A stretch of 33,898 bases of DNA, taken from contig JAFGPZ010000254.1 of NCBI GenBank assembly GCA_016935935.1, positions 1 through 33,898 on the forward strand, given 5' to 3'. Origin of the DNA: Deltaproteobacteria bacterium. GTDB taxonomy: Bacteria; Desulfobacterota; Syntrophia; Syntrophales; UBA2210. The notes under the pieces were generated by a model. That model did no database searches. It was not told where the DNA came from and worked only from the letters and a program-made list of their open reading frames with translations. The translations under genes and the position numbers were made by a program. Shown here one piece after another: positions 25,664 through 33,898 of the stretch; position 1 is the first letter of the stretch, and every line of letters starts with the position of its first letter.

Positions 25664-26986
25664 TTAATGGAAAAAATTATGACCTAATTTGAGCAATTGT
25701 TTGAATCCAACCGACCAACCATAATCATCGCTTAATGTATGCTGATGCCATATTATACTTGCCTCACCGCAAACTGCCTTAATTTCCTCAATCCACTTCT
25801 CGATCTCAACGATACACGCTTGATCATCAAGATTACAATAGTCATATAAATGTGAATCCATCAGCACAGTCGGCATGATTCTAATGTCAAGTTCACCATT
25901 AACGCTTTTGCTCCAGGGATGAACAGAAAGAGCTGCACCATTACGAAAACCTGGACGATTATTGAAACCAAGAGTCATATCACACGCAATACCTGCTTCA
26001 TTAAGAGAGAGCCACGTATGCTCCCACGAGAAACGCAGCCAGTGAATTCGCGCAAATTCCAAGTCTGTATTTAAAATATCCTCAATTGCGTTTTTTTCAC
26101 TTTTTAAAAGCGCTGAATTATTATAATTCATACACGAATGATGCACTCCTACAATCCACCCGCCCTCCATAAGTTGTTTCGCCATCTTTTGAACCCGTTC
26201 CTCCCTCACTGAGTATCCAGGATCAAGCAGAAGCGCCCTCGGATGACGCATAATTCCCGTGCAACCACTATAAAAATTGAATATGCTTTTAACGCCGTAC
26301 TGTTCCTCAAGTTTCAGAATCTCATCAAAACACCAATAGTCATCGTTGCTGGTAAAAAAACTCAGCGCCTTACCAAATTTTTTAAGACCTCTGAGGGGCC
26401 TACCCGTAATAATAGATTTACCTGCATTATAGGCATGAAACACAGCCTGCTTACATCGAATCGCAAAAGTTTTTCGTATAGCATCAACATCATGAGTAAG
26501 CACAATTTTAGTACTAGGCAATGGGCCAAACAGATCGTCTTCACTCGCATCGTTTATTCTAGCCGCCCAGCGTCTTAGAAACAGTGCAATCCTATTGACC
26601 CAAGCTCGCTCCCACATACATGGATTCCACCTCTTGAGACGAAATGAATATGAATGAATAGGTCCGTGTTTTTGCTCAAAAAACCGTTCGGCAACACCAT
26701 CCAAGTACCATATAATCGCCGCAATCCAATCGGTCCGCATCCATTCTGGGTCATTGCCATCTAAAACAGCAGCTTTTGGAATGAGAAGGTAACCGTCTGG
26801 CGCCAGATCTTCAGCCCATTCAGGTATTGCAATTTCAATCAACTTTGGTGCTTTTGCATCTTCAGTAAACAAGTCAACTGAAGGGATTGCCAATTTTTCA
26901 ATAAGCTTCTGACCTTTACTCCAATAGCGATTGAGTGATTCTACTGCCCATTTTCTTTGATTCCTATCAATCAGATATTGCATCAT
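25664..26986 (-). CDS. Polysaccharide deacetylase-like (NodB-homology) protein
   Basis: This 440-residue protein carries a NodB-like domain in its C-terminal two thirds. IVLTHDVDAIRK takes the place of the TFDDG metal/base motif, YGVKSIFNFY follows, and GWIVGVHHSCMNYNN corresponds to the His-x(3)-His motif region. Further on are RIHWLRFSWEHTW and a late MPTVLMDSHLYD block, with IIWHQHTLSDDYGW near the end. The N-terminal 130 residues are not recognised. No signal peptide is seen, so it may act on a cytoplasmic lipid-linked or nucleotide-sugar substrate, removing an N-acetyl group. Its start overlaps the asparagine-synthase stop (ATGA), giving coupling. Confidence 0.83.
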   Translation of the reverse strand: MMQYLIDRNQRKWAVESLNRYWSKGQKLIEKLAIPSVDLFTEDAKAPKLIEIAIPEWAEDLAPDGYLLIPKAAVLDGNDPEWMRTDWIAAIIWYLDGVAERFFEQKHGPIHSYSFRLKRWNPCMWERAWVNRIALFLRRWAARINDASEDDLFGPLPSTKIVLTHDVDAIRKTFAIRCKQAVFHAYNAGKSIITGRPLRGLKKFGKALSFFTSNDDYWCFDEILKLEEQYGVKSIFNFYSGCTGIMRHPRALLLDPGYSVREERVQKMAKQLMEGGWIVGVHHSCMNYNNSALLKSEKNAIEDILNTDLEFARIHWLRFSWEHTWLSLNEAGIACDMTLGFNNRPGFRNGAALSVHPWSKSVNGELDIRIMPTVLMDSHLYDYCNLDDQACIVEIEKWIEEIKAVCGEASIIWHQHTLSDDYGWSVGFKQLLKLGHNFFH

Positions 26987-28920
26987 GCATCCACAAACTT
27001 CCTATGCCACAACTCAACACAGAGAGCTCCCCATAAGCTCCTGTCGAAAGGCCGGGAACCGGGATCCGGAACTCGGGACCGGGAACCGCTAAACAAGGCT
27101 TGATCATAAAGGCCGCGCTCACACGCACGCTTTGAAGTCATTATCTCATGTACATACCCCTTAAGCGGACCATTAAACCATTCAGCGATGGGTGTTGGGA
27201 AACCACGCTTATCCTTTCGGTTCCAAATCATTTTAGGGACAATGTTTTTTACCGCTTCCCTAAACACATGCTTAGGCCTACCGCCTTTCCACTTGACGGT
27301 CGGCGGCATTTTCGCGGCCAATTCTATGATGCGGTGATCTAGCAACGGCACGCGCGACTCAAGCGAAACCGCCATGCTAGTGCGATCCTCAACTTGGAGA
27401 AGAGCTGGAATAAAAATTGTGAGATCAAACGCAAGCATGCGGTTCAAGAGCGACTTTGCCTTCGAAGCGTTGAACATCGCGATGAAGCGCTCCTCTGCTC
27501 CTCCAAGGGATTCTTCCCCTTCGACTCGCTGCTTTCGCTCAGGGTCAGAATGACAGATATTGAAATACTTGTTTCCGATGTCGCGACGCATAAGCCGCAA
27601 ATAACGCTTTGCCGGGTCTTCAAAAAGACCATGATGCCAAAACATTCTCATAAGAGGCTGATATTCTTTTAATAATGGTAGACTTGGAAGTAGAGATTCA
27701 AAAGAAACTACAAATCGAGCGTCGTGTTCTCGCTGTGTCTCGTTAATGGCGCCTTTCAGACATTCTTCAAGATAGGCCAAATAATATCGTGCATATCCAC
27801 CAAAAGTTTCGTCTCCACCCAAACCGCTCAGAACAACCTTCACATGTTCGCGAGCCAATACGGAAACGGAATATTGCGGCACAAGACCCGGACCGGCCTG
27901 CGGTTCATCCATAAAATAAATCAGTCTTTCCAGTTCATCAGCAATTCCTTCACAATTAACCTCTTGAAAAAACCCTTGAGTACCAAGCGTGTCGTTAACT
28001 GCCCGCGCATATTGACTTTCATCATAAATACCACCCTCCGAAAAATAACCGGTAAACGTCTTAAGCGAAGAACCAATGTTTTTCGAGGATAGACAGCAAA
28101 CCGCCGAAGAGTCGAGTCCACCGCTTAAATGCGCCCCCACGGGGACATCGCTGCGCACCTGCAGGCGAACGGCATCCTCAAGCAAAAGTTGAAGCATATC
28201 GACATATGCAGACTCATCGCATTCAGCAGACTCATCAACCGTAAAATCGAGATCCCAGTACCGCTCGATACGGCATGATCCATTCTTGAGTGTGAGGGTG
28301 TGTCCGGGCAGAATCTTCTTGACGCCCTTGAAAAACGTTCCGTCCGTGAGGCTCATCTGGAGAAGGATGTAGTCCTCCAGCGCTGTCATATTAAGTTCCG
28401 GCTTCACTAGCTTTGCGGCCGTAAACGCCTTGATTTCCGAGGCAAAGGCAAGTCGTTCCTTATCAACGATATAATATAGCGGTTTAATTCCAATCCTATC
28501 CCTGCAGAGTATAAGAGAACGATCGCCCGCATTCCAAACGGCAAATGCGAACATGCCGTTGAGTTTTTCAAGACAGGTGACGCCTTCTCTTTGGAAAAGC
28601 TTAAGCAACACTTCAGTATCCGACTGAGTGCGAAAACAAACGCCTTGATTCGCAAGCTCTGTCCTGAGTTCAAGATAATTATAAATTTCACCGTTGAGTA
28701 CGATAGTGAATGTTCCGTCATCAGTCGTCATCGGCTGATGACCGCCTTCAAGATCGATGATACTCAGGCGCTTGTGGCCAAGCGCAACTGGCCCCGAGGA
28801 ATAAAAGCCTTCATCATCCGGTCCGCGGTGATGCAGCGCGTCCATCATAAGGCGAACTGCACGTCTATCGCTATCCGTAGCCAGGCCATCTGTTCTAAGT
28901 AAACCTGCTATACCGCACAT
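26983..28920 (-). CDS. asnB: Asparagine synthase-like glutamine amidotransferase
   Basis: This 645-residue class II amidotransferase has Cys2 as N-terminal nucleophile (MCGIAGLL), the GATase-2 motifs HHRGPDDEG, LGHKRLSIIDLEGGHQP and LNGEIYNY, then the ATP-pyrophosphatase P-loop SGGLDSSAV near residue 265 and GLGGDETFGGY. Paralogues of this type in polysaccharide loci are thought to amidate sugar carboxylates. Two stretches look foreign. Residues encoded at about 27504-27556 (HSDPERKQRVEGEES) derive from an interspersed repeat, and GSRSRVPDPGSR near the C-terminus derives from a heptanucleotide array. The frame is intact through both. The ATG has no visible ribosome binding site because another heptad array lies directly upstream. 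The product may be active if both segments are surface loops. Confidence 0.9.
   Translation of the reverse strand: MCGIAGLLRTDGLATDSDRRAVRLMMDALHHRGPDDEGFYSSGPVALGHKRLSIIDLEGGHQPMTTDDGTFTIVLNGEIYNYLELRTELANQGVCFRTQSDTEVLLKLFQREGVTCLEKLNGMFAFAVWNAGDRSLILCRDRIGIKPLYYIVDKERLAFASEIKAFTAAKLVKPELNMTALEDYILLQMSLTDGTFFKGVKKILPGHTLTLKNGSCRIERYWDLDFTVDESAECDESAYVDMLQLLLEDAVRLQVRSDVPVGAHLSGGLDSSAVCCLSSKNIGSSLKTFTGYFSEGGIYDESQYARAVNDTLGTQGFFQEVNCEGIADELERLIYFMDEPQAGPGLVPQYSVSVLAREHVKVVLSGLGGDETFGGYARYYLAYLEECLKGAINETQREHDARFVVSFESLLPSLPLLKEYQPLMRMFWHHGLFEDPAKRYLRLMRRDIGNKYFNICHSDPERKQRVEGEESLGGAEERFIAMFNASKAKSLLNRMLAFDLTIFIPALLQVEDRTSMAVSLESRVPLLDHRIIELAAKMPPTVKWKGGRPKHVFREAVKNIVPKMIWNRKDKRGFPTPIAEWFNGPLKGYVHEIMTSKRACERGLYDQALFSGSRSRVPDPGSRPFDRSLWGALCVELWHRKFVDA
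27053..27087. repeat. Heptanucleotide array inside asnB
   Basis: About five 7-bp units (cgggaac, cgggatc, cggaact, cgggac, cgggaac) with one base missing near the end. It is read in frame by asnB on the minus strand as part of SGSRSRVPDPGSRPF, close to the C-terminus. Confidence 0.85.
27504..27556. repeat. REP-like interspersed element inside asnB
   Basis: The minus strand reads tgtcattctgaccctgagcg and continues into a purine-rich gaagggg/gaatccctt end. This matches a dispersed element I know from many bacterial genomes, where it leaves HSDPERSEGEES-like peptides in predicted proteins. Here it encodes HSDPERKQRVEGEESL in frame within the synthase domain. Assignment is from memory of the peptide signature. 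Confidence 0.6.
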
Positions 28921-28928
28921 AAAAGATT

Positions 28929-28949
28929 GGTTAAAGGTAAAGGGTTAAT
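28929..28949. repeat. Heptad array upstream of asnB
   Basis: Three units (ggttaaa, ggtaaag, ggttaat), ending eight bases before the asnB ATG and taking the place where a ribosome binding site should be. Confidence 0.55.
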
Positions 28950-28979
28950 TAAGATGCAATATTAAAGATAAATGACAAT

Positions 28980-29810
28980 TCATGATTCCTGGGCTGCAAG
29001 TTCAGGCCGCGCCTTCATCGTTTTTCGATACTGCCGGGCCTCGTTGCGCCATTTCTTGGTCATGGCGCCCCATGGATAGATATTCAATAATGCGAGAGTA
29101 AGATAACCAAGCGTGGTAACGCTGGTAAGCATTTTGCTTCCACCTGATTTCTGGTTGTACTTAAGGATGAACGGCACCTCGGTCATCCTGCAACCCAGAT
29201 GCCTAAGTTTGACAAGTTTTTCCAGCGTGCACGTAAATCCAAGCCCTTTCAAGGCTACAAATTCATTGCCGTATATCCTGATGGCCACCTGAATAATCTC
29301 AGCCCTGTATGCCCTGAAGCCGCATGAGTACTCTCTCACACCCTTGATGGGAAACATACATTTCATGAACAGATTCGCGCACAAGCTAATAAAAGTGCGA
29401 TATGCGTTTACACCTTCCATCCCTCCGCCTTTCTGGAAGCGGGATGCAATCACCACATCATACCCCCGTTCGATTTTTTCCACCATTGAGGGAATATAAT
29501 CCGGCTCGTGCGTATTATCGGCATCCATTCTAACAATCACGTCATCTGGATTGGCCAGCTCAGCCGCAGTTTCAAAACCATCGCGCGAAGTCTCGCCAAG
29601 TCCGCGATTGATCTTGTGATTTATTATGGTCATGGGAACTTGGACTGACCACTGCCTGAGCACCGCCTCGGTAAAATCCTTGCTGCCATCATTGACCGCA
29701 ACGATGTGAATCGGATGGCCTGTCCTCTCCTTCATGGTCACGACTTTGGATAGCAGGGGCTGCAGTGATTTTTCTTCGTTGTAACAAGGAAGGATTATAA
29801 AGATGGTCAT
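28980..29810 (-). CDS. Family 2 glycosyltransferase, polyprenyl-phosphate sugar transferase-like
   Basis: This 276-residue GT-A enzyme has FIILPCYNEEKSLQPLL, HIVAVNDGSKDFT, the NRGLGETSRDGFETA block typical of dolichyl/polyprenyl-phosphate mannosyl- or glucosyltransferases, and the metal-binding DADNTH with the following EPDYIPSMVEKIERGYDVV. GVREYSCGFRAYRAEII follows. No strong C-terminal membrane pair is visible, only a hydrophobic LGYLTLALLNIYPWG stretch. It may make a polyprenyl-phosphate-linked sugar for a GT-C enzyme (candidate at 19138) or add a sugar directly. AGGA lies six bases before its ATG. Confidence 0.9.
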   Translation of the reverse strand: MTIFIILPCYNEEKSLQPLLSKVVTMKERTGHPIHIVAVNDGSKDFTEAVLRQWSVQVPMTIINHKINRGLGETSRDGFETAAELANPDDVIVRMDADNTHEPDYIPSMVEKIERGYDVVIASRFQKGGGMEGVNAYRTFISLCANLFMKCMFPIKGVREYSCGFRAYRAEIIQVAIRIYGNEFVALKGLGFTCTLEKLVKLRHLGCRMTEVPFILKYNQKSGGSKMLTSVTTLGYLTLALLNIYPWGAMTKKWRNEARQYRKTMKARPELAAQES

Positions 29811-29820
29811 GTGAAGTCCT

Positions 29821-29871
29821 GGTTAACGGTTAAGGGCAATTGAGAAACTGGAAGCTAGAAGCTAGATGCAA
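29821..29871. repeat. Compound heptad array between the HEPN gene and the GT2 gene
   Basis: Two ggttaac/ggttaag units at 29821-29834, two degenerate units, then gaagcta twice (29851-29864) and gatgcaa. Two heptad families sit side by side in one 78-bp intergenic gap. Confidence 0.75.
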
Positions 29872-29888
29872 GAAAACAGGGGCCTGGT

Positions 29889-30359
29889 TTATTTTGCCAC
29901 TTTTTTAAGAAACGCGGATATCTGCGAGACAACTGTTTTTTTGTGTTTTTTCCACTTGATAACAATCAATTCGATTCTATCAGCATCCAGACTGAACATA
30001 TACGACTGTCTGAATACGTGTCTGAAAGACCTCAGTTCATCTAAAAAAACAAACGATTCGTTATCAATAACTGCCGGCCTGATCCCGTCTATATCGAGCC
30101 GCATCCGCAATAAAAGTTCGCTATGCCACACTGCTGGGTTCTCTATATGATTTTCGAATACCTTGGCTATTTTTTCAAAAATATTCTCAAGACAGGAGTA
30201 GACACCGTTCAAATAATATGCGGTCAAAACGCGGTTCTGTTCCAGCTGCAGATTGGAAGAAAAGTTTGCTATATTCGCGTCCAGATCGGAGAGCTTCTTC
30301 AGGTGGAACTCCGCTTCATTCTTCAATGTCTGCCTTGCTTCAAACGACAGTTTTTTCAT
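29889..30359 (-). CDS. HEPN-domain toxin, HepT-like, with altered active-site motif
   Basis: This 156-residue all-helical protein pairs with the upstream nucleotidyltransferase. Family relatives (HepT) are RNases with a conserved RX4HXY motif. Tyr in that motif is AMPylated by the partner to neutralise the toxin. Here the motif reads RHVFRQSY, so the catalytic His is Gln. The codon is CAG, one base from CAC or CAT. The rest of the domain, including VYSCLENIFEKIAKVFENHIE and FVFLDELRSFRHVFRQSYMFSLD, is intact, and the frame is open. The protein is either a dead toxin kept with its partner or a variant with another function. The ATG overlaps the partner gene by 20 bases, as usual for this pair. 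Confidence 0.85.
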   Translation of the reverse strand: MKKLSFEARQTLKNEAEFHLKKLSDLDANIANFSSNLQLEQNRVLTAYYLNGVYSCLENIFEKIAKVFENHIENPAVWHSELLLRMRLDIDGIRPAVIDNESFVFLDELRSFRHVFRQSYMFSLDADRIELIVIKWKKHKKTVVSQISAFLKKVAK

Positions 30360-30687
30360 AAATCACCACCTTTTTATCGAGAATGCTTTTGTCTTCTTCC
30401 GTTATATCGCTGAGGAGGATCAAATCGATCTTCGAGCTCATCCTGCCTTCCAGAAACCTGAAGAGATCGAAATAGTTTTCCTTGGGAAGCCCGTCGACCA
30501 CGATGTCCATATCCGAACGCATGTCAAACATAAGCGGCTTGGCCACAGAACCTATGATCCATATTTTTGATATGCCAGGAAACCGCTGCAGCACTTCCGC
30601 AACCGACCCGCGCAATTCCGCAATCAACGCGCTTCTGCGCTGCTCCCGCTTCGGATCGATTTGCATCTTTGTATTTTCCGTGTTCAC
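30340..30687 (-). CDS. Minimal nucleotidyltransferase, MntA-like antitoxin
   Basis: This 115-residue MNT-type nucleotidyltransferase has the catalytic GS motif in IWIIGSVAKPL, the metal-binding DMDIVVDG pair eleven residues on, and a third acidic position in KIDLILL. In MNT/HEPN modules this enzyme AMPylates the HEPN toxin. The start is GTG at 30687 with GGAG eight bases upstream; an internal ATG at 30666 is possible but has no such site. It precedes and overlaps the HEPN gene. The catalytic residues look intact, in contrast with its partner. Confidence 0.85.
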   Translation of the reverse strand: MNTENTKMQIDPKREQRRSALIAELRGSVAEVLQRFPGISKIWIIGSVAKPLMFDMRSDMDIVVDGLPKENYFDLFRFLEGRMSSKIDLILLSDITEEDKSILDKKVVIYEKTVV

Positions 30688-30717
30688 GCGACAAACTCCA
30701 GAATTGCCGGATAGGGT

Positions 30718-30915
30718 CTATAAACTGACGGAATTATACATAATACGGTCACAAATAAACTGAAAGGCAGAAGCTAGAAGCCACTCCCAGACCGGGATGC
30801 AATCGATCTCCACGTCATCCACATGCTCCACCCCTCTGTAGCCGTACGTCAAGATCATGGGCCTGCTCTTTTTAAACACACCCAAGGCATGACGAAGCGC
30901 CTTGAGCGGTACATT
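30718..30915 (-). pseudogene. C-terminal remnant of a DUF4143-type ATP-binding protein
   Basis: The 66 codons after the AlbA_2-type gene's TGA are open in the same frame and read like a protein end: PLKALRHALGVFKKSRPMIL, TYGYRGVEHVDDVEIDCIPV and WEWLL, then a tail to a TAG at 30718. The alkyl-helix, LTY, and I-x-x-x-P-x-W-x-WLL pattern resembles the C-terminus of AAA-type ATPases with a DUF4143 domain (COG1373). There is no start codon with a ribosome binding site and no ATPase part, so this is a truncated relic. The residues after WEWLL come from a heptad array. Confidence 0.6.
30760..30780. repeat. Degenerate heptad array at the end of the ATPase relic
   Basis: Three units (ctgaaag, gcagaag, ctagaag) of the gaagcta family. 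They are read within the relic's tail as LLASAF. Confidence 0.6.
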
Positions 30916-32325
30916 TCACGAGTCCTTTGTCTTGACCTTCCAATACCCGCCCCTGGCGGGGCCGATGCGCTCTAAACAACCCTTCAACTTCAATTTTTTG
31001 ATATTTTCCTCGATCTTTCTCTGAGATATCCCGATTTTTCCTGCCAGCTCCTCCGCCGAAATGGTTTCATTTTCTTTAATAAAATCAATTATTTTAGACT
31101 GATTCGGCGTCAGTTTTTCTCCGACCTTTTCTCCGACCTTTTCTCCGACCTTTTCTCCGACCTTTTCTCCCTCCTCCATATCTCCCTTTTTCAAAACAAG
31201 TATAAACAATTCACCAAAATCAAACTCCGGCTCCGGCAATCCTGCCTTTTCAAGCTCATCCCTCATCCTCTTGATACCCGAACCGATCTTCTCAACCAGC
31301 CCCGCCCTGTGAAAGATATCGAATATCAAAGGGTTCCCCGGAAAGCTCAACTCCCCAAACCTTCTCTTTACCGCTTCCGGCATCGAACAGGGATTATAGA
31401 TCACGATGCGATCGTCAAAGACATCCACCATGATACCCAATCTGCTCTCATAGTAATCCCTGTGGACAATTGCGTTTACCAGGGCTTCGCGCAGGACAGC
31501 TTCAGGGATTTCCCGTATCTCTTCCCGCTTCTTTGTCTTTATGACATACCGAACGGCCGTGTACTGTTTCAGAAATGCCAGCGAATCGCTGTAATTGGTG
31601 AGCAGATCGCTGTTGAAGTCCTTGCGGTCTATAACCTCATATTTCGTCGTCCCCTTGTAACGAACACAAGTCACAGTACTGTGCCTGATGTGCCTCACAG
31701 GTTCCCTGGCAAATAAAAGGACACAGGCGTTATTGACGGTCATAGCGTCGTCGTCCTTAACCGCCAATCCGAGGTTTTCCATCAGCAGACCATAGGATTT
31801 TTTGTCCTGATCTATGCCGGCTTCGTCCGTGAAGTGTTTTATCTTCTTGAAATCGATGTCATCAGGCCATCTGCATTTGGCACTTATCTGTTCATCGAAG
31901 CGGACCCTACCCTGAGCAGCTGCAAAAGACAGAATCTCCTTTCTGCTCAATTTTTCAGTACTCGGTCCGACTCTCATAAAAAAACCGGCGCTGCAGGAAT
32001 ATGGCTTATCTGCCCCCTCAGGAACATCCACCAGCAATACCGTCCGCCCGATGTGCTCGATGGAAGATACGGAAACATTCACGGCTGGATCGCAATTCCG
32101 TGCATGATCCATAACAAGAGCCTTGTTTCTGTTCACATCGGCGATCCCGACTACATCGGCCATGTCATCGACACCGACCAAAACACGCCCACCGGATGCG
32201 TTGGCAAAGGCCACGATGCTTTTGGATAGGGATTTATCGACGGACTTTTTGAATTCGAGATTGTATCCCTCGTCCTCCTTCAAGAGGGAATCAATTTCTC
32301 GATTGGAATACTCTTTATGGCTCAT
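30916..32325 (-). CDS. AlbA_2/HATPase_c_4-type ATP-binding regulator with C-terminal winged helix
   Basis: This 469-residue protein is of the COG2865 type. The N-terminal AlbA_2 (former AAA_4) domain has NLEFKKS, IVAFANASGGRVLVGVDD and LVDVPEGADKPYS. The HATPase_c_4-like part has EAVLREALVNAIVHRDYYE and GLVEKIGSGIKRMRDELEKAGLP. A (GEKV)n linker follows, then a winged helix (TPNQSKIIDFIKENETISAEELAGKIGIS). Members act as transcriptional regulators, sometimes near defence genes. The ATG at 32325 is chosen because the AlbA_2 domain starts there; the 24-residue extension to 32397 begins with TTG and runs through a heptad array. It is unrelated to sugar metabolism and likely a passenger. Confidence 0.88.
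   Translation of the reverse strand: MSHKEYSNREIDSLLKEDEGYNLEFKKSVDKSLSKSIVAFANASGGRVLVGVDDMADVVGIADVNRNKALVMDHARNCDPAVNVSVSSIEHIGRTVLLVDVPEGADKPYSCSAGFFMRVGPSTEKLSRKEILSFAAAQGRVRFDEQISAKCRWPDDIDFKKIKHFTDEAGIDQDKKSYGLLMENLGLAVKDDDAMTVNNACVLLFAREPVRHIRHSTVTCVRYKGTTKYEVIDRKDFNSDLLTNYSDSLAFLKQYTAVRYVIKTKKREEIREIPEAVLREALVNAIVHRDYYESRLGIMVDVFDDRIVIYNPCSMPEAVKRRFGELSFPGNPLIFDIFHRAGLVEKIGSGIKRMRDELEKAGLPEPEFDFGELFILVLKKGDMEEGEKVGEKVGEKVGEKVGEKLTPNQSKIIDFIKENETISAEELAGKIGISQRKIEENIKKLKLKGCLERIGPARGGYWKVKTKDS
31115..31174. repeat. 12-bp tandem repeat in the regulator gene
   Basis: Five in-frame 12-bp units (ttttctccgacc, last one changed to ttttctccctcc) encode the GEKVGEKVGEKV linker between the ATPase-like and winged-helix parts. 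Four units are identical, so the copy number may vary between isolates. Confidence 0.95.
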
Positions 32326-32358
32326 GATCCGTAATGTTTTTTTCGCGGCAGTTCTTTT

Positions 32359-32379
32359 CGGTAAACGGTTAACGCCGAA
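32359..32379. repeat. Heptad array upstream of the regulator
   Basis: Three units (cggtaaa, cggttaa, cgccgaa), the last degenerate, located 34 bases upstream of the preferred ATG. Confidence 0.55.
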
Positions 32380-32397
32380 GCGTGTAAACTTTGGCAA

Positions 32398-32711
32398 TCA
32401 CTGAATACAATATTCTGCCCTCATGATTCTATGGACCGGATGCCACTGAATATGTTTTATCGAGTCAGGGCGATATTTCACCATATCGTCGCCTGCCGGA
32501 GAACCCATGCCCAGAAAAACTCGTTGCAGTAGAGATGGTCCTTGTACAGGAGAAAACGAGTCGGATGCCATTTTTTCGGACGAGATATGAAATAGGGGCC
32601 TGCCCATACGGTATCGAACTCATCGGAAACCGGCTGCGTCTTTTTGAGCAGCACAAACGCCTTTTTCAAGAGTTGCGCGATATCTTTTCGGGCATTTTCC
32701 GTCTTCTTCAT
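32398..32711 (-). pseudogene. Unrecognised short ORF, possibly frameshifted
   Basis: From an ATG at 32711 one frame encodes MKKTENARKDIAQLLKKAFV and continues to WAGPYFISRPKKWHP and FFWAWVLRQ, stopping at 32478. Next to that stop another frame stays open to 32398 and reads GDDMVKYRPDSIKHIQWHPV. The two together could be one protein of roughly 110 residues broken by a single frameshift near 32490-32500. I do not recognise either part, the ribosome binding site is poor, and neither half shows a known motif. It may be decaying or not a gene. Confidence 0.35.
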
Positions 32712-32775
32712 CTGTGCGATCAGCCTTGCGGCGCAGCCCAACAGCGCTGTGTTGGTTCAAACCATTTTATCAGCC

Positions 32776-33898
32776 TTAAATACCTTCTGTCCGGGACGGA
32801 TCTGCAACCGAAGCCAAAAGCTGGATGCGAGAAGCTAGAATATTTAGAATCGATGCAAAGGCTAAGGCGGAGTCTGGTTGTGTCGCAGCCCTGACCATAG
32901 ACGCACTGCAATATTCCTTAGACGCACGGATGATGGCACCGGCGTCGGCGCCCGTGACTTTATTCCATCCGACTTCCACAGTTTCGATCCACTCCGTCTC
33001 GTCCCGCATCGTAATGCAGGGGACGCCCAACCAGAAGGCCTCTTTTTGAATGCCGCCGGAGTCGGTCAGAATAATTGATGCGGAGCCTTCGAGCCTTAGC
33101 ATATCTATATAAGATACGGGATCGATTGCCTTAATGCCGCTTTTTCGGAACTCGGGACCCGGGACCCGGGACCCGGAACTACCAATCAAGTCCGTCAGCC
33201 CTGCATCCTTGATAGCCTTTTGAGTTCTTGGGTGAACAGGGAACACGACGGGCATGTCCTTTGAGATTTCGGCAAGCGCCTCGAGAATATTGCGGAGGCG
33301 CGCGGGGTCGTCGGTGTTTTCGGCGCGGTGGACAGTGCACAATGCGTAACTCGTGACCCGTGACCCGTGACCCGATTCAGGCAACAAACCCAGGTCAGAC
33401 AATATTGTGGATTTCTCGGATGCAATACCCTTGTACAGCATAACGGCATCGTACATTACGTCGCCGACGAGGTGGACCTCTTCTGTGATGCCTTCGTTTT
33501 TGAGGTTCTTGACCGCCGTCTCGGTGGCGCAGAAGTGCCACTTGGCGACGTGGTCGGTGAGCACCCGGTTGATCTCCTCGGGCATGCGACGGTTGAATGA
33601 ACGCATGCCTCCCTCGACGTGGCCGACGGGGATATGGAGCTTGGCGGCGGCCAGGGCGCCTGCCAGCGTGGAGTTCGTATCGCCATACACGAGGACAGCA
33701 TCAGGTTTTTCGCCAAGCAGCACCTCTTCGATCGCAGAAAGCATGCGGCCGGTTTGATCGCCGTGGGAACCCGAACCGACATCCAGATGATACTTCGGTT
33801 CCGGAATATCCATCTGGTCAAAGAACGACCGGCTCATGGCATAATCGTAATGTTGGCCGGTGTGAACCAATACTTCCGTGATCAGTGACTCGTGACCC
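32776..33898 (-). CDS. wecB: UDP-N-acetylglucosamine 2-epimerase (non-hydrolysing), N-terminus outside window
   Basis: This interconverts UDP-GlcNAc and UDP-ManNAc. The frame is open through the right edge; the 364-residue stretch from a TTG at 33870 is not the true start, since VLVHTGQHYDYAMS normally lies about 40 residues in. Family motifs visible: YGDTNSTLAGALAAAKLHIP, GHVEGGMRSFNRRMPEEINR, CTVHRAENTDDP, PVHPRTQKAI, SYIDMLRL and LTDSGGIQKEAFWLGVPCIT. Three insertions are made of heptanucleotide arrays read in frame: upstream of TGQHYD (33884 to the edge), GHGSRVTS before the HRAENTDDP block, and SGSRVPGPEF before the SYIDM block. The C-terminal tail (LASRIQLLASVAD) is a fourth, degenerate one. 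No stop or frameshift is present. Whether the protein is functional with these loops is open. Confidence 0.92.
   Translation of the reverse strand, partial: GHESLITEVLVHTGQHYDYAMSRSFFDQMDIPEPKYHLDVGSGSHGDQTGRMLSAIEEVLLGEKPDAVLVYGDTNSTLAGALAAAKLHIPVGHVEGGMRSFNRRMPEEINRVLTDHVAKWHFCATETAVKNLKNEGITEEVHLVGDVMYDAVMLYKGIASEKSTILSDLGLLPESGHGSRVTSYALCTVHRAENTDDPARLRNILEALAEISKDMPVVFPVHPRTQKAIKDAGLTDLIGSSGSRVPGPEFRKSGIKAIDPVSYIDMLRLEGSASIILTDSGGIQKEAFWLGVPCITMRDETEWIETVEVGWNKVTGADAGAIIRASKEYCSASMVRAATQPDSALAFASILNILASRIQLLASVADPSRTEGI
32813..32840. repeat. Degenerate heptad array in the 3' end of wecB
   Basis: Four units of the gaagcta family (gccaaaa, gctggat, gcgagaa, gctagaa) encode the last residues of the WecB tail. 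Confidence 0.65.
33146..33180. repeat. Perfect-period heptad array in wecB
   Basis: Exactly five 7-bp units: cggaact, then cgggacc three times, then cggaact. It is read on the minus strand as SSGSRVPGPEF without a stop. Confidence 0.95.
33345..33379. repeat. Second heptad array in wecB
   Basis: cgtaact, then cgtgacc three times, then a degenerate cgattca. Same edge-core-edge layout as the array at 33146, but with T in place of G at the third base of each unit. Read in frame as SGHGSRVTSY. Confidence 0.95.
33884..33898. repeat. Heptad array at the window edge, in wecB
   Basis: agtgact, cgtgacc and a further c are visible before the sequence ends; the array probably continues. It lies in the wecB frame just upstream of the TGQHYD block. 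Confidence 0.75.

What the first reader, a model, noticed from the sequence alone, without database searches (positions are those of the whole stretch)
27053..33898. A family of 7-bp-period arrays clustered in the right 7 kb
At least nine short arrays share a strict seven-base period but use different unit families: cgggacc, cgtgacc, gaagcta and ggttaac types. They lie at 27053, 28929, 29821, 30760, 32359, 32813, 33146, 33345 and 33884. I noticed none in the left 27 kb. Fixed period with variable sequence suggests the generating process recognises length rather than sequence, similar in form to the STRR heptamers of heterocystous cyanobacteria. They are absent from the A+T-rich cluster genes, so they may mark the resident chromosome.
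Basis: partly seen in the sequence, partly recalled or inferred. Interest (0 to 1): 0.8.

Follow-up and report, generated by a model that had tools for sequence, protein, structure and literature searches.

The report
Seven-base repeat arrays of fixed length
Short DNA arrays repeating every seven bases, often about 32 bases long, sit in gaps between genes and in-frame in enzyme genes, and in related bacteria one such spot keeps the seven-base rhythm while the repeated letters change; such repeats are known, but this turnover in one place looks new.

Summary
In the right 7 kb period 7 is enriched: 4 clear arrays against 0.02-0.04 expected, none in the left 27 kb. The other five sites are weak; three gain support from shared units. 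CGGGACC, CGTGACC and GGTTAAC can be read as variants of one unit (GGKTMMC); GAAGCTA is separate. Three of the four strong arrays are in-frame inserts in AsnB and WecB.

Relatives give the main result. Units differ by species (AATCCGC, ACTCCGA, ACTCAAA, GACACGA; window GTCACGG): 87% alike within arrays, 54% between species, 3' flanks 71% (10 sequences). Array lengths peak at 31-33 nt, also without G-runs (bin chosen after seeing the histogram). Open-ended slippage alone and G-quadruplexes fit this poorly.

Heptamer repeats are a known class (Xanthomonas, Nostoc, Geobacter, Beggiatoaceae), and a 7-nt slippage idea is in print. So "length, not sequence" is supported but not new; "marks the resident chromosome" is not shown. 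New variant of a known kind.

The parts
27052..27088 (.). Period-7 array (CCGGGAA type, imperfect) inside the asnB gene, encoding the in-frame C-terminal stretch GSRSRVPDPGSRP
   Evidence: P0001 carries extra residues here against nine of ten aligned AsnB relatives, and P0004 (70% identical) has GSRFTVHGSR at the same place
28929..28948 (.). Weak GGTTAAA-type run upstream of asnB; not above chance by itself
   Evidence: score 5.5; 14/25 in a 32-nt frame
29821..29836 (.). GGTTAAC GGTTAAG run in the spacer next to the glycosyltransferase gene; ends 7 bases before the next array
   Evidence: GGTTAANGGTTAA 1 found, 0.0 expected
29844..29875 (.). GAAGCTA-type array read as five boxes GAAA-GAAG-GAAG-GATG-GAAA with three-base spacers
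   Evidence: 19/25 matches; score 13
30757..30788 (.). Degenerate GAAGCTA-type array on the other side of the HepT/MNT gene pair
   Evidence: 13/25; exact GAAGCTAGAAGC at 30770, 0.0 expected
32359..32374 (.). CGGTAAACGGTTAACG run upstream of the AlbA_2-type gene; weak
   Evidence: score 6.5
32811..32842 (.). Degenerate GAAGC-type array in the C-terminal tail of the wecB reading frame (ILASRIQLLAS)
   Evidence: 15/25, 12/16 in boxes
33145..33179 (.). CGGGACC array, in-frame insert in WecB loop 3 (GSSGSRVPGPEFRKSG)
   Evidence: alignment; coil, pLDDT < 50 at residues 241-251 of the model
33345..33376 (.). CGTGACC array, in-frame insert in WecB loop 2 (PESGHGSRVTS)
   Evidence: the same slot is filled in 11 of 11 WecB genes found in one order
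33885..33898 (.). GTGACTCGTGACCC, cut by the window end, in WecB loop 1
   Evidence: relatives carry array-like peptides in loop 1
26983..28920 (-). asnB (asparagine synthase, glutamine-hydrolysing), host of one array
   Evidence: PF00733 and PF13537
32776..33898 (-). wecB (UDP-GlcNAc 2-epimerase), runs off the window; host of two clear arrays (loops 2 and 3), one cut by the window end and one degenerate; frame open throughout
   Evidence: PF02350, E 4.1e-104; translation

Best explanation
These are members of the dispersed heptamer-repeat class. They arise and grow by local copying in 7-nt steps: each new unit copies its neighbour. Many settle at a preferred total length near 32 nt, which can be read as five four-base boxes separated by four three-base spacers. 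They survive where they do little harm: in spacers, sometimes as inverted pairs, and in-frame in enzyme loops. At such a place the array stays while its unit is overwritten, so between species the period and often the length persist and the letters do not. Shown: the period, the shared slot, unit differences between species, the fall of similarity with distance between units, the length peak, the open frames. Inferred: that copying is replication slippage or template switching, that overwriting happens in place rather than by reinsertion, and that loops and spacers are merely tolerated sites.
For: Period 7 leads in stretches not chosen for arrays: 34 vs 0.4 shuffled in 439,581 bases of one order (period 8: 17, period 12: 12, period 6: 7; 21 of the 34 from genome G471); 22 vs 1.0 in one stretch from each of 40 genomes (period 6: 12, period 12: 10). 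WecB loop 2 of all 11 genes found in that order (E <= 1e-90, 11 of 17 genomes), and of the window, holds an array ending just before Y[YA]L[AC]T. In 10 of these sequences, window included, units are 0.87 alike within an array (60 unit pairs) and 0.54 between species, with 3' flanks 0.71 (45 pairs; L116, degenerate, and L117, interrupted, left out; the outgroup L120 had no anchor). L115 (ACTCAAA) and L117 (ACTCCGA) are sisters (100/98), 86.5% identical over the gene, yet two positions differ through the units. Unit similarity falls with distance: 0.816, 0.746, 0.688, 0.629, 0.611 at lags 1 to 5 in 30 heterogeneous arrays. Lengths 31-33 nt: 23 arrays against 7 at the six neighbouring lengths, p = 1.5e-6; without GGG/CCC 18 against 5. 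One orthologous spacer holds AACTCCG-type, AATCCGC-type or period-8 runs in different genomes (period 8 read by eye).
Against: Independent reinsertion at a tolerated loop is not excluded: in the window's closer relatives the same loops hold other repeat-like peptides too (P0126, P0128, P0133). With unit families compared in the register fixed by the flanks, that register was best in 9 of 15 family pairs, but in 4 of these only as a tie. Single-unit slippage in wecB would pass through frameshifts. The 31-33 nt bin was chosen after seeing the histogram; 9 of the 23 arrays in it come from genome G471, and shuffled sequence gave 9 arrays of that length in 30 rounds. No shuffle control was run for the inverted pairs. 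The window's own genome and taxon are unknown.
Confidence: 0.5

Rival explanations
1. Repeated independent insertion of pre-formed arrays or array-bearing mobile elements at the few loops and spacers that tolerate them, in the manner of Rickettsia palindromic elements.
For: The same WecB loops in relatives hold different kinds of repeat-like peptides. A ~220-bp element with two inverted heptamer arrays matches many places in the G471 genome and its order. One orthologous spacer holds unlike sequences in different genomes.
Against: Nearly constant array end point and 30-nt slot in the order, with some unit families closely related in register (AATCCGC/ACTCCGA 5 of 7, ACTCAAA/ACTCCGA 5 of 7, GACACGA/GTCACGG 5 of 7). 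Transposases and target duplications were not searched for.
Confidence: 0.22
2. Ordinary neutral simple-sequence repeats: open-ended polymerase slippage of 7 nt plus point mutation, with no length control.
For: Neighbour units are most alike; slippage proposal for 7 nt reported in PMC4679880 and PMC4692102 (passages).
Against: Length peak at 31-33 nt instead of a smooth decline, seen again in a second, pattern-selected set after removing the seed arrays (39 at 31-33 against 30 at the six neighbours among 127 arrays); unit change at near-constant in-frame length.
Confidence: 0.2
3. Phase-variable contingency locus: wecB is switched on and off by gain or loss of heptamers, as neuO is.
For: Polysaccharide-type gene with in-frame heptamers. 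NeuO carries AAGACTC repeats encoding RLKTQDS (PMC3046976, passages); the G471 loop has AAAACTC encoding KLKTQNS.
Against: The arrays lie in the middle of the gene and have about four units; the 11 genes of the order and the window's are all in frame. Arrays also fill spacers.
Confidence: 0.06
4. The arrays work as G-quadruplex (or sequence-specific protein-binding) elements, and four to five units are needed for that structure.
For: Proposed for GGGAATC repeats with a four-unit preference (PMC4692102, abstract passage).
Against: The length peak is also there in arrays without any GGG or CCC (18 against 5), and units such as ACTCAAA cannot supply G-tracts.
Confidence: 0.02

Closest known systems
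GGGAATC / GGGGA(C/T)T heptameric repeats of Xanthomonas and Nostoc (PMC4692102)
   Same: Heptamers with perfect or heterogeneous units, preference for four units, inverted pairs, places within 50 bp of stop codons, places mostly kept between two Xanthomonas species while length and sequence vary (passages)
   Different: That study treats G-rich units, rare inside genes in Xanthomonas (11% and 7%); here several unit families occur in one genome, many without G-runs, and one in-frame enzyme slot shows unit exchange across an order
Geobacter metallireducens four-heptanucleotide elements, GGGACCG/GGACCGG (PMC2700814)
   Same: Four tandem heptamers, 49 copies, within and between genes, unit close to CGGGACC; a second heptamer class MTYCTGA (passages)
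   Different: Described as putative regulatory elements with one consensus; no comparison of units at orthologous sites in the passages seen
TAACTGA repeats of marine Beggiatoaceae (PMC4679880)
   Same: Dispersed heptamer arrays of two to six units, patchy over distant phyla (abstract and passages)
   Different: One fixed unit, related heptamers rarely or never repeated, particularly upstream of start codons
neuO poly-psi heptanucleotide tract of E. coli K1 (PMC3046976, passages)
   Same: In-frame heptamers in a surface-polysaccharide gene; unit one base from the AAAACTC loop of G471
   Different: At the 5' end, 2 to 93 copies, frequent gain or loss of copies
Rickettsia palindromic elements (PMC10969869, passages)
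   Same: Dispersed repeats inserted in-frame in protein genes
   Different: About 150 bp with a conserved peptide

Membership tests
Heptameric long simple sequence repeats | Tandem units of 7 bp beyond chance | tested here: met
   4 vs 0.02-0.04 expected in the window; 34 vs 0.4 in one order of relatives
Heptameric long simple sequence repeats | Dispersed, mainly intergenic | tested here: met
   In relatives 27 of 44 arrays lie outside ORFs of 120 aa or more (wecB stretches included); in the window itself 3 of 4 strong arrays are coding
Xanthomonas/Nostoc G-rich heptamers | G-rich unit with a GGG run able to form G-quadruplexes | tested here: not met
   82 of 108 arrays in relatives have no GGG/CCC. 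Window GAAGCTA and GGTTAAC units have none; the CGGGACC unit does
Xanthomonas/Nostoc G-rich heptamers | Preference for four units; inverted pairs | tested here: inconclusive
   31-33 nt peak in relatives; inverted partner within 160 bp for 18 of 69 arrays against direct for 11 of 69, no shuffle control. No inverted pair was shown in the window
STRR of heterocystous cyanobacteria | Defined STRR units in cyanobacterial genomes | not tested
   Recalled only; the window's taxon is unknown
Phase-variable heptanucleotide tracts (neuO type) | Copy number varies and off-frame alleles occur | tested here: inconclusive
   11 genes of the order and the window's are in frame; no strain series available
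Rickettsia palindromic elements | ~150 bp element with conserved peptide, in-frame in genes | tested here: not met
   Slot of about 30 nt, peptides differ by species

The most novel reading that the evidence does not exclude
A dedicated cellular process writes and rewrites short arrays by measure: 7-nt steps, about 32 nt in total (five boxes), indifferent to the letters copied. It acts repeatedly on the same sites, so that the rhythm is inherited and the text is replaced.
Probability: 0.17. Interest if true: 0.85.

Novelty: new variant of a known kind. Interest (0 to 1): 0.58.

Why it matters
Why seven is a favoured repeat length in bacterial genomes is, to my knowledge, unsettled. A single gene slot where many species keep the seven-base rhythm but exchange the unit makes the question testable, because it separates length from sequence. 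The length peak in units without G-runs also argues against G-quadruplex formation as the general reason for the published four-unit preference.

Tried and rejected
Resident-chromosome marker: not supported, because the left cluster has nearly no spacers and the genome is not held. A+T content as the cause of absence: the left 12 kb has G+C 0.45-0.53, like the right, and is also array-free. Plasmid origin: no near match of window 28900-33898 in the plasmid collection. Virus origin: the pattern found in 70 stretches of genome contigs has 0 in viral contigs; collection sizes were not normalised. Placing the window: in the genomes searched, long WecB matches reached at most 63% identity and partial ones 67%, so its lineage was not found. 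AsnB in the order: 4 of 17 genomes, 37-38% identical, not usable for the tail slot. Fixed-register test: mixed, best or tied best in 9 of 15 family pairs. Box/spacer contrast in middle unit pairs of 31-33 nt arrays: 0.85 vs 0.72; in the pattern-selected set 0.92 vs 0.87; in arrays of 22-28 nt, as control, 0.88 vs 0.85. Structure model: pLDDT 78, used only to place arrays in coils; surface exposure was not computed and no fold search was made. Papers: 8 searches; no listed title or abstract start reports unit exchange at orthologous heptamer arrays, but most subscription papers are not held. The original repeat survey behind the 7-nt proposal was not seen, only reports of it in the two papers named.
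Full report
Observation. A scan of the window for s[i]=s[i+7] found four clear period-7 arrays in the right 7 kb (0.04 expected in 100 shuffles; 0.02 in 60) and none in the left 27 kb. They are at 27052, 29844, 33145 and 33345. The remaining five sites are weak. Read on one strand, the CGGGACC, CGTGACC, CCGGGAA and GGTTAAC units look like variants of GGKTMMC; GAAGCTA is a second family.

Place in genes. Array 27052 is an in-frame stretch near the C-terminus of AsnB. A 70% identical relative (P0004) has GSRFTVHGSR in the same place, a peptide that a GGTTCAC repeat would encode (inference from protein only). WecB (PF02350) carries arrays in loop 3 (33145) and loop 2 (33345), probably one in loop 1 (window end), and a degenerate one in its tail. 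The reading frame is open throughout. Against the best-matching solved epimerases loops 2 and 3 are insertions, and in a model (pLDDT 78) they are coils. The twelve nearest relatives listed (62-77% identical), nearly all from metagenomes, carry other array-like peptides in many of the same loops, and some have short loops.

One slot, many units. In the 30 nt before the next strand the units are AATCCGC (L118, L147, L148, L149), AATCCAC/AATCCGC (L151), ACTCCGA (L122, L150, L117), ACTCAAA (L115), GACACGA (L121); the window has GTCACGG. In ten sequences, window included, units are 0.87 alike within an array and 0.54 between species; 3' flanks are 0.71. L115 and L117 are sisters (100/98) with 86.5% gene identity but different units. 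Because 7 is not a multiple of 3, successive units are read in different frames, so selection on the peptide cannot by itself keep units alike. I infer that copying between units does.

How common. Stretches not chosen for arrays: 34 period-7 arrays in 439,581 bases of the order against 0.4 shuffled, 21 of them in G471, with 17 of period 8 and 12 of period 12. In one stretch from each of 40 further genomes of the phylum, 22 in 588,605 bases against 1.0, in 9 of 40 stretches; period 6 had 12 and period 12 had 10. In 17 stretches from a second phylum (that of a Nitrospirae MAG, most taken around WecB), 1 in 321,853 bases. Among 70 pattern-selected stretches, Xanthomonadaceae dominate, but Geobacter, Bacteroidales, Chloroflexi, FCPU426, Acidobacteria and others occur.

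Length and build. Of 108 arrays with score >= 9, 23 are 31-33 nt long and 7 fall on the six neighbouring lengths (p = 1.5e-6; the bin was chosen after the histogram, and 9 of the 23 are from G471). The peak holds without GGG/CCC (18 against 5) and in the pattern-selected set after removing the seed arrays (39 against 30). Thirty-two nucleotides equal five boxes of four and four spacers of three. Within middle units, box positions agree more than spacer positions (156/184 against 100/138), less so in the second set (360/392 against 256/294), and hardly in 22-28 nt arrays (200/228 against 97/114). Some of the stretches come from two genomes that the pattern search had found (G010, G011). Units grow less alike with distance. 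Inverted partners occur within 160 bp for 18 of 69 arrays, direct ones for 11 of 69, without a shuffle control. One orthologous operon spacer holds heptamers of two unit types, a period-8 run (read by eye) or another element, depending on the genome; in G471 it folds into a hairpin.

Reading. The best account is local copying in 7-nt steps, a preferred length, tolerance in spacers and loops, and overwriting of units in place. Reinsertion at tolerated sites is the main rival. Published relatives are the heptamers of Xanthomonas/Nostoc, Geobacter metallireducens and Beggiatoaceae, and neuO for in-frame heptamers.

Noticed in passing
27500-27556: AsnB carries a second insert (around HSDPERKQRVEGEESLGG) where the other ten aligned rows have a gap; the DNA resembles a dispersed repeat of the GTCATTCTGAGC kind (recalled).
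   Followed up: partly
31115-31170: Perfect 12-bp array of 4.7 copies in the AlbA_2/HATPase gene, encoding GEKV repeats before its C-terminal winged helix.
   Followed up: no
29889-30687: HepT-like and nucleotidyltransferase genes side by side (PF20797, PF18765), possibly a toxin-antitoxin pair, with GAAGCTA-type arrays on both sides in the same orientation.
   Followed up: no
L157:19088-19310: A ~220-bp dispersed element with two inverted TTTAGAG-type arrays; a ~56-bp stretch beside it matches at dozens of listed places in the order, mostly 88-98% identical.
   Followed up: partly
L208, L217 (orthologues of L161:4540-4680): A period-8 run (read by eye) takes the place of the heptamers; period 8 is the second commonest short period (17 arrays) in the order, but none was found in the 40 other genomes' stretches.
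   Followed up: partly
L013:5013-5547: About 31-bp heptamer arrays repeat about every 72 bp, eight times, in Pseudoxanthomonas spadix.
   Followed up: no
L117, wecB loop 2: A 21-nt GC-rich palindrome-like insert lies inside the heptamer array and keeps the frame.
   Followed up: no
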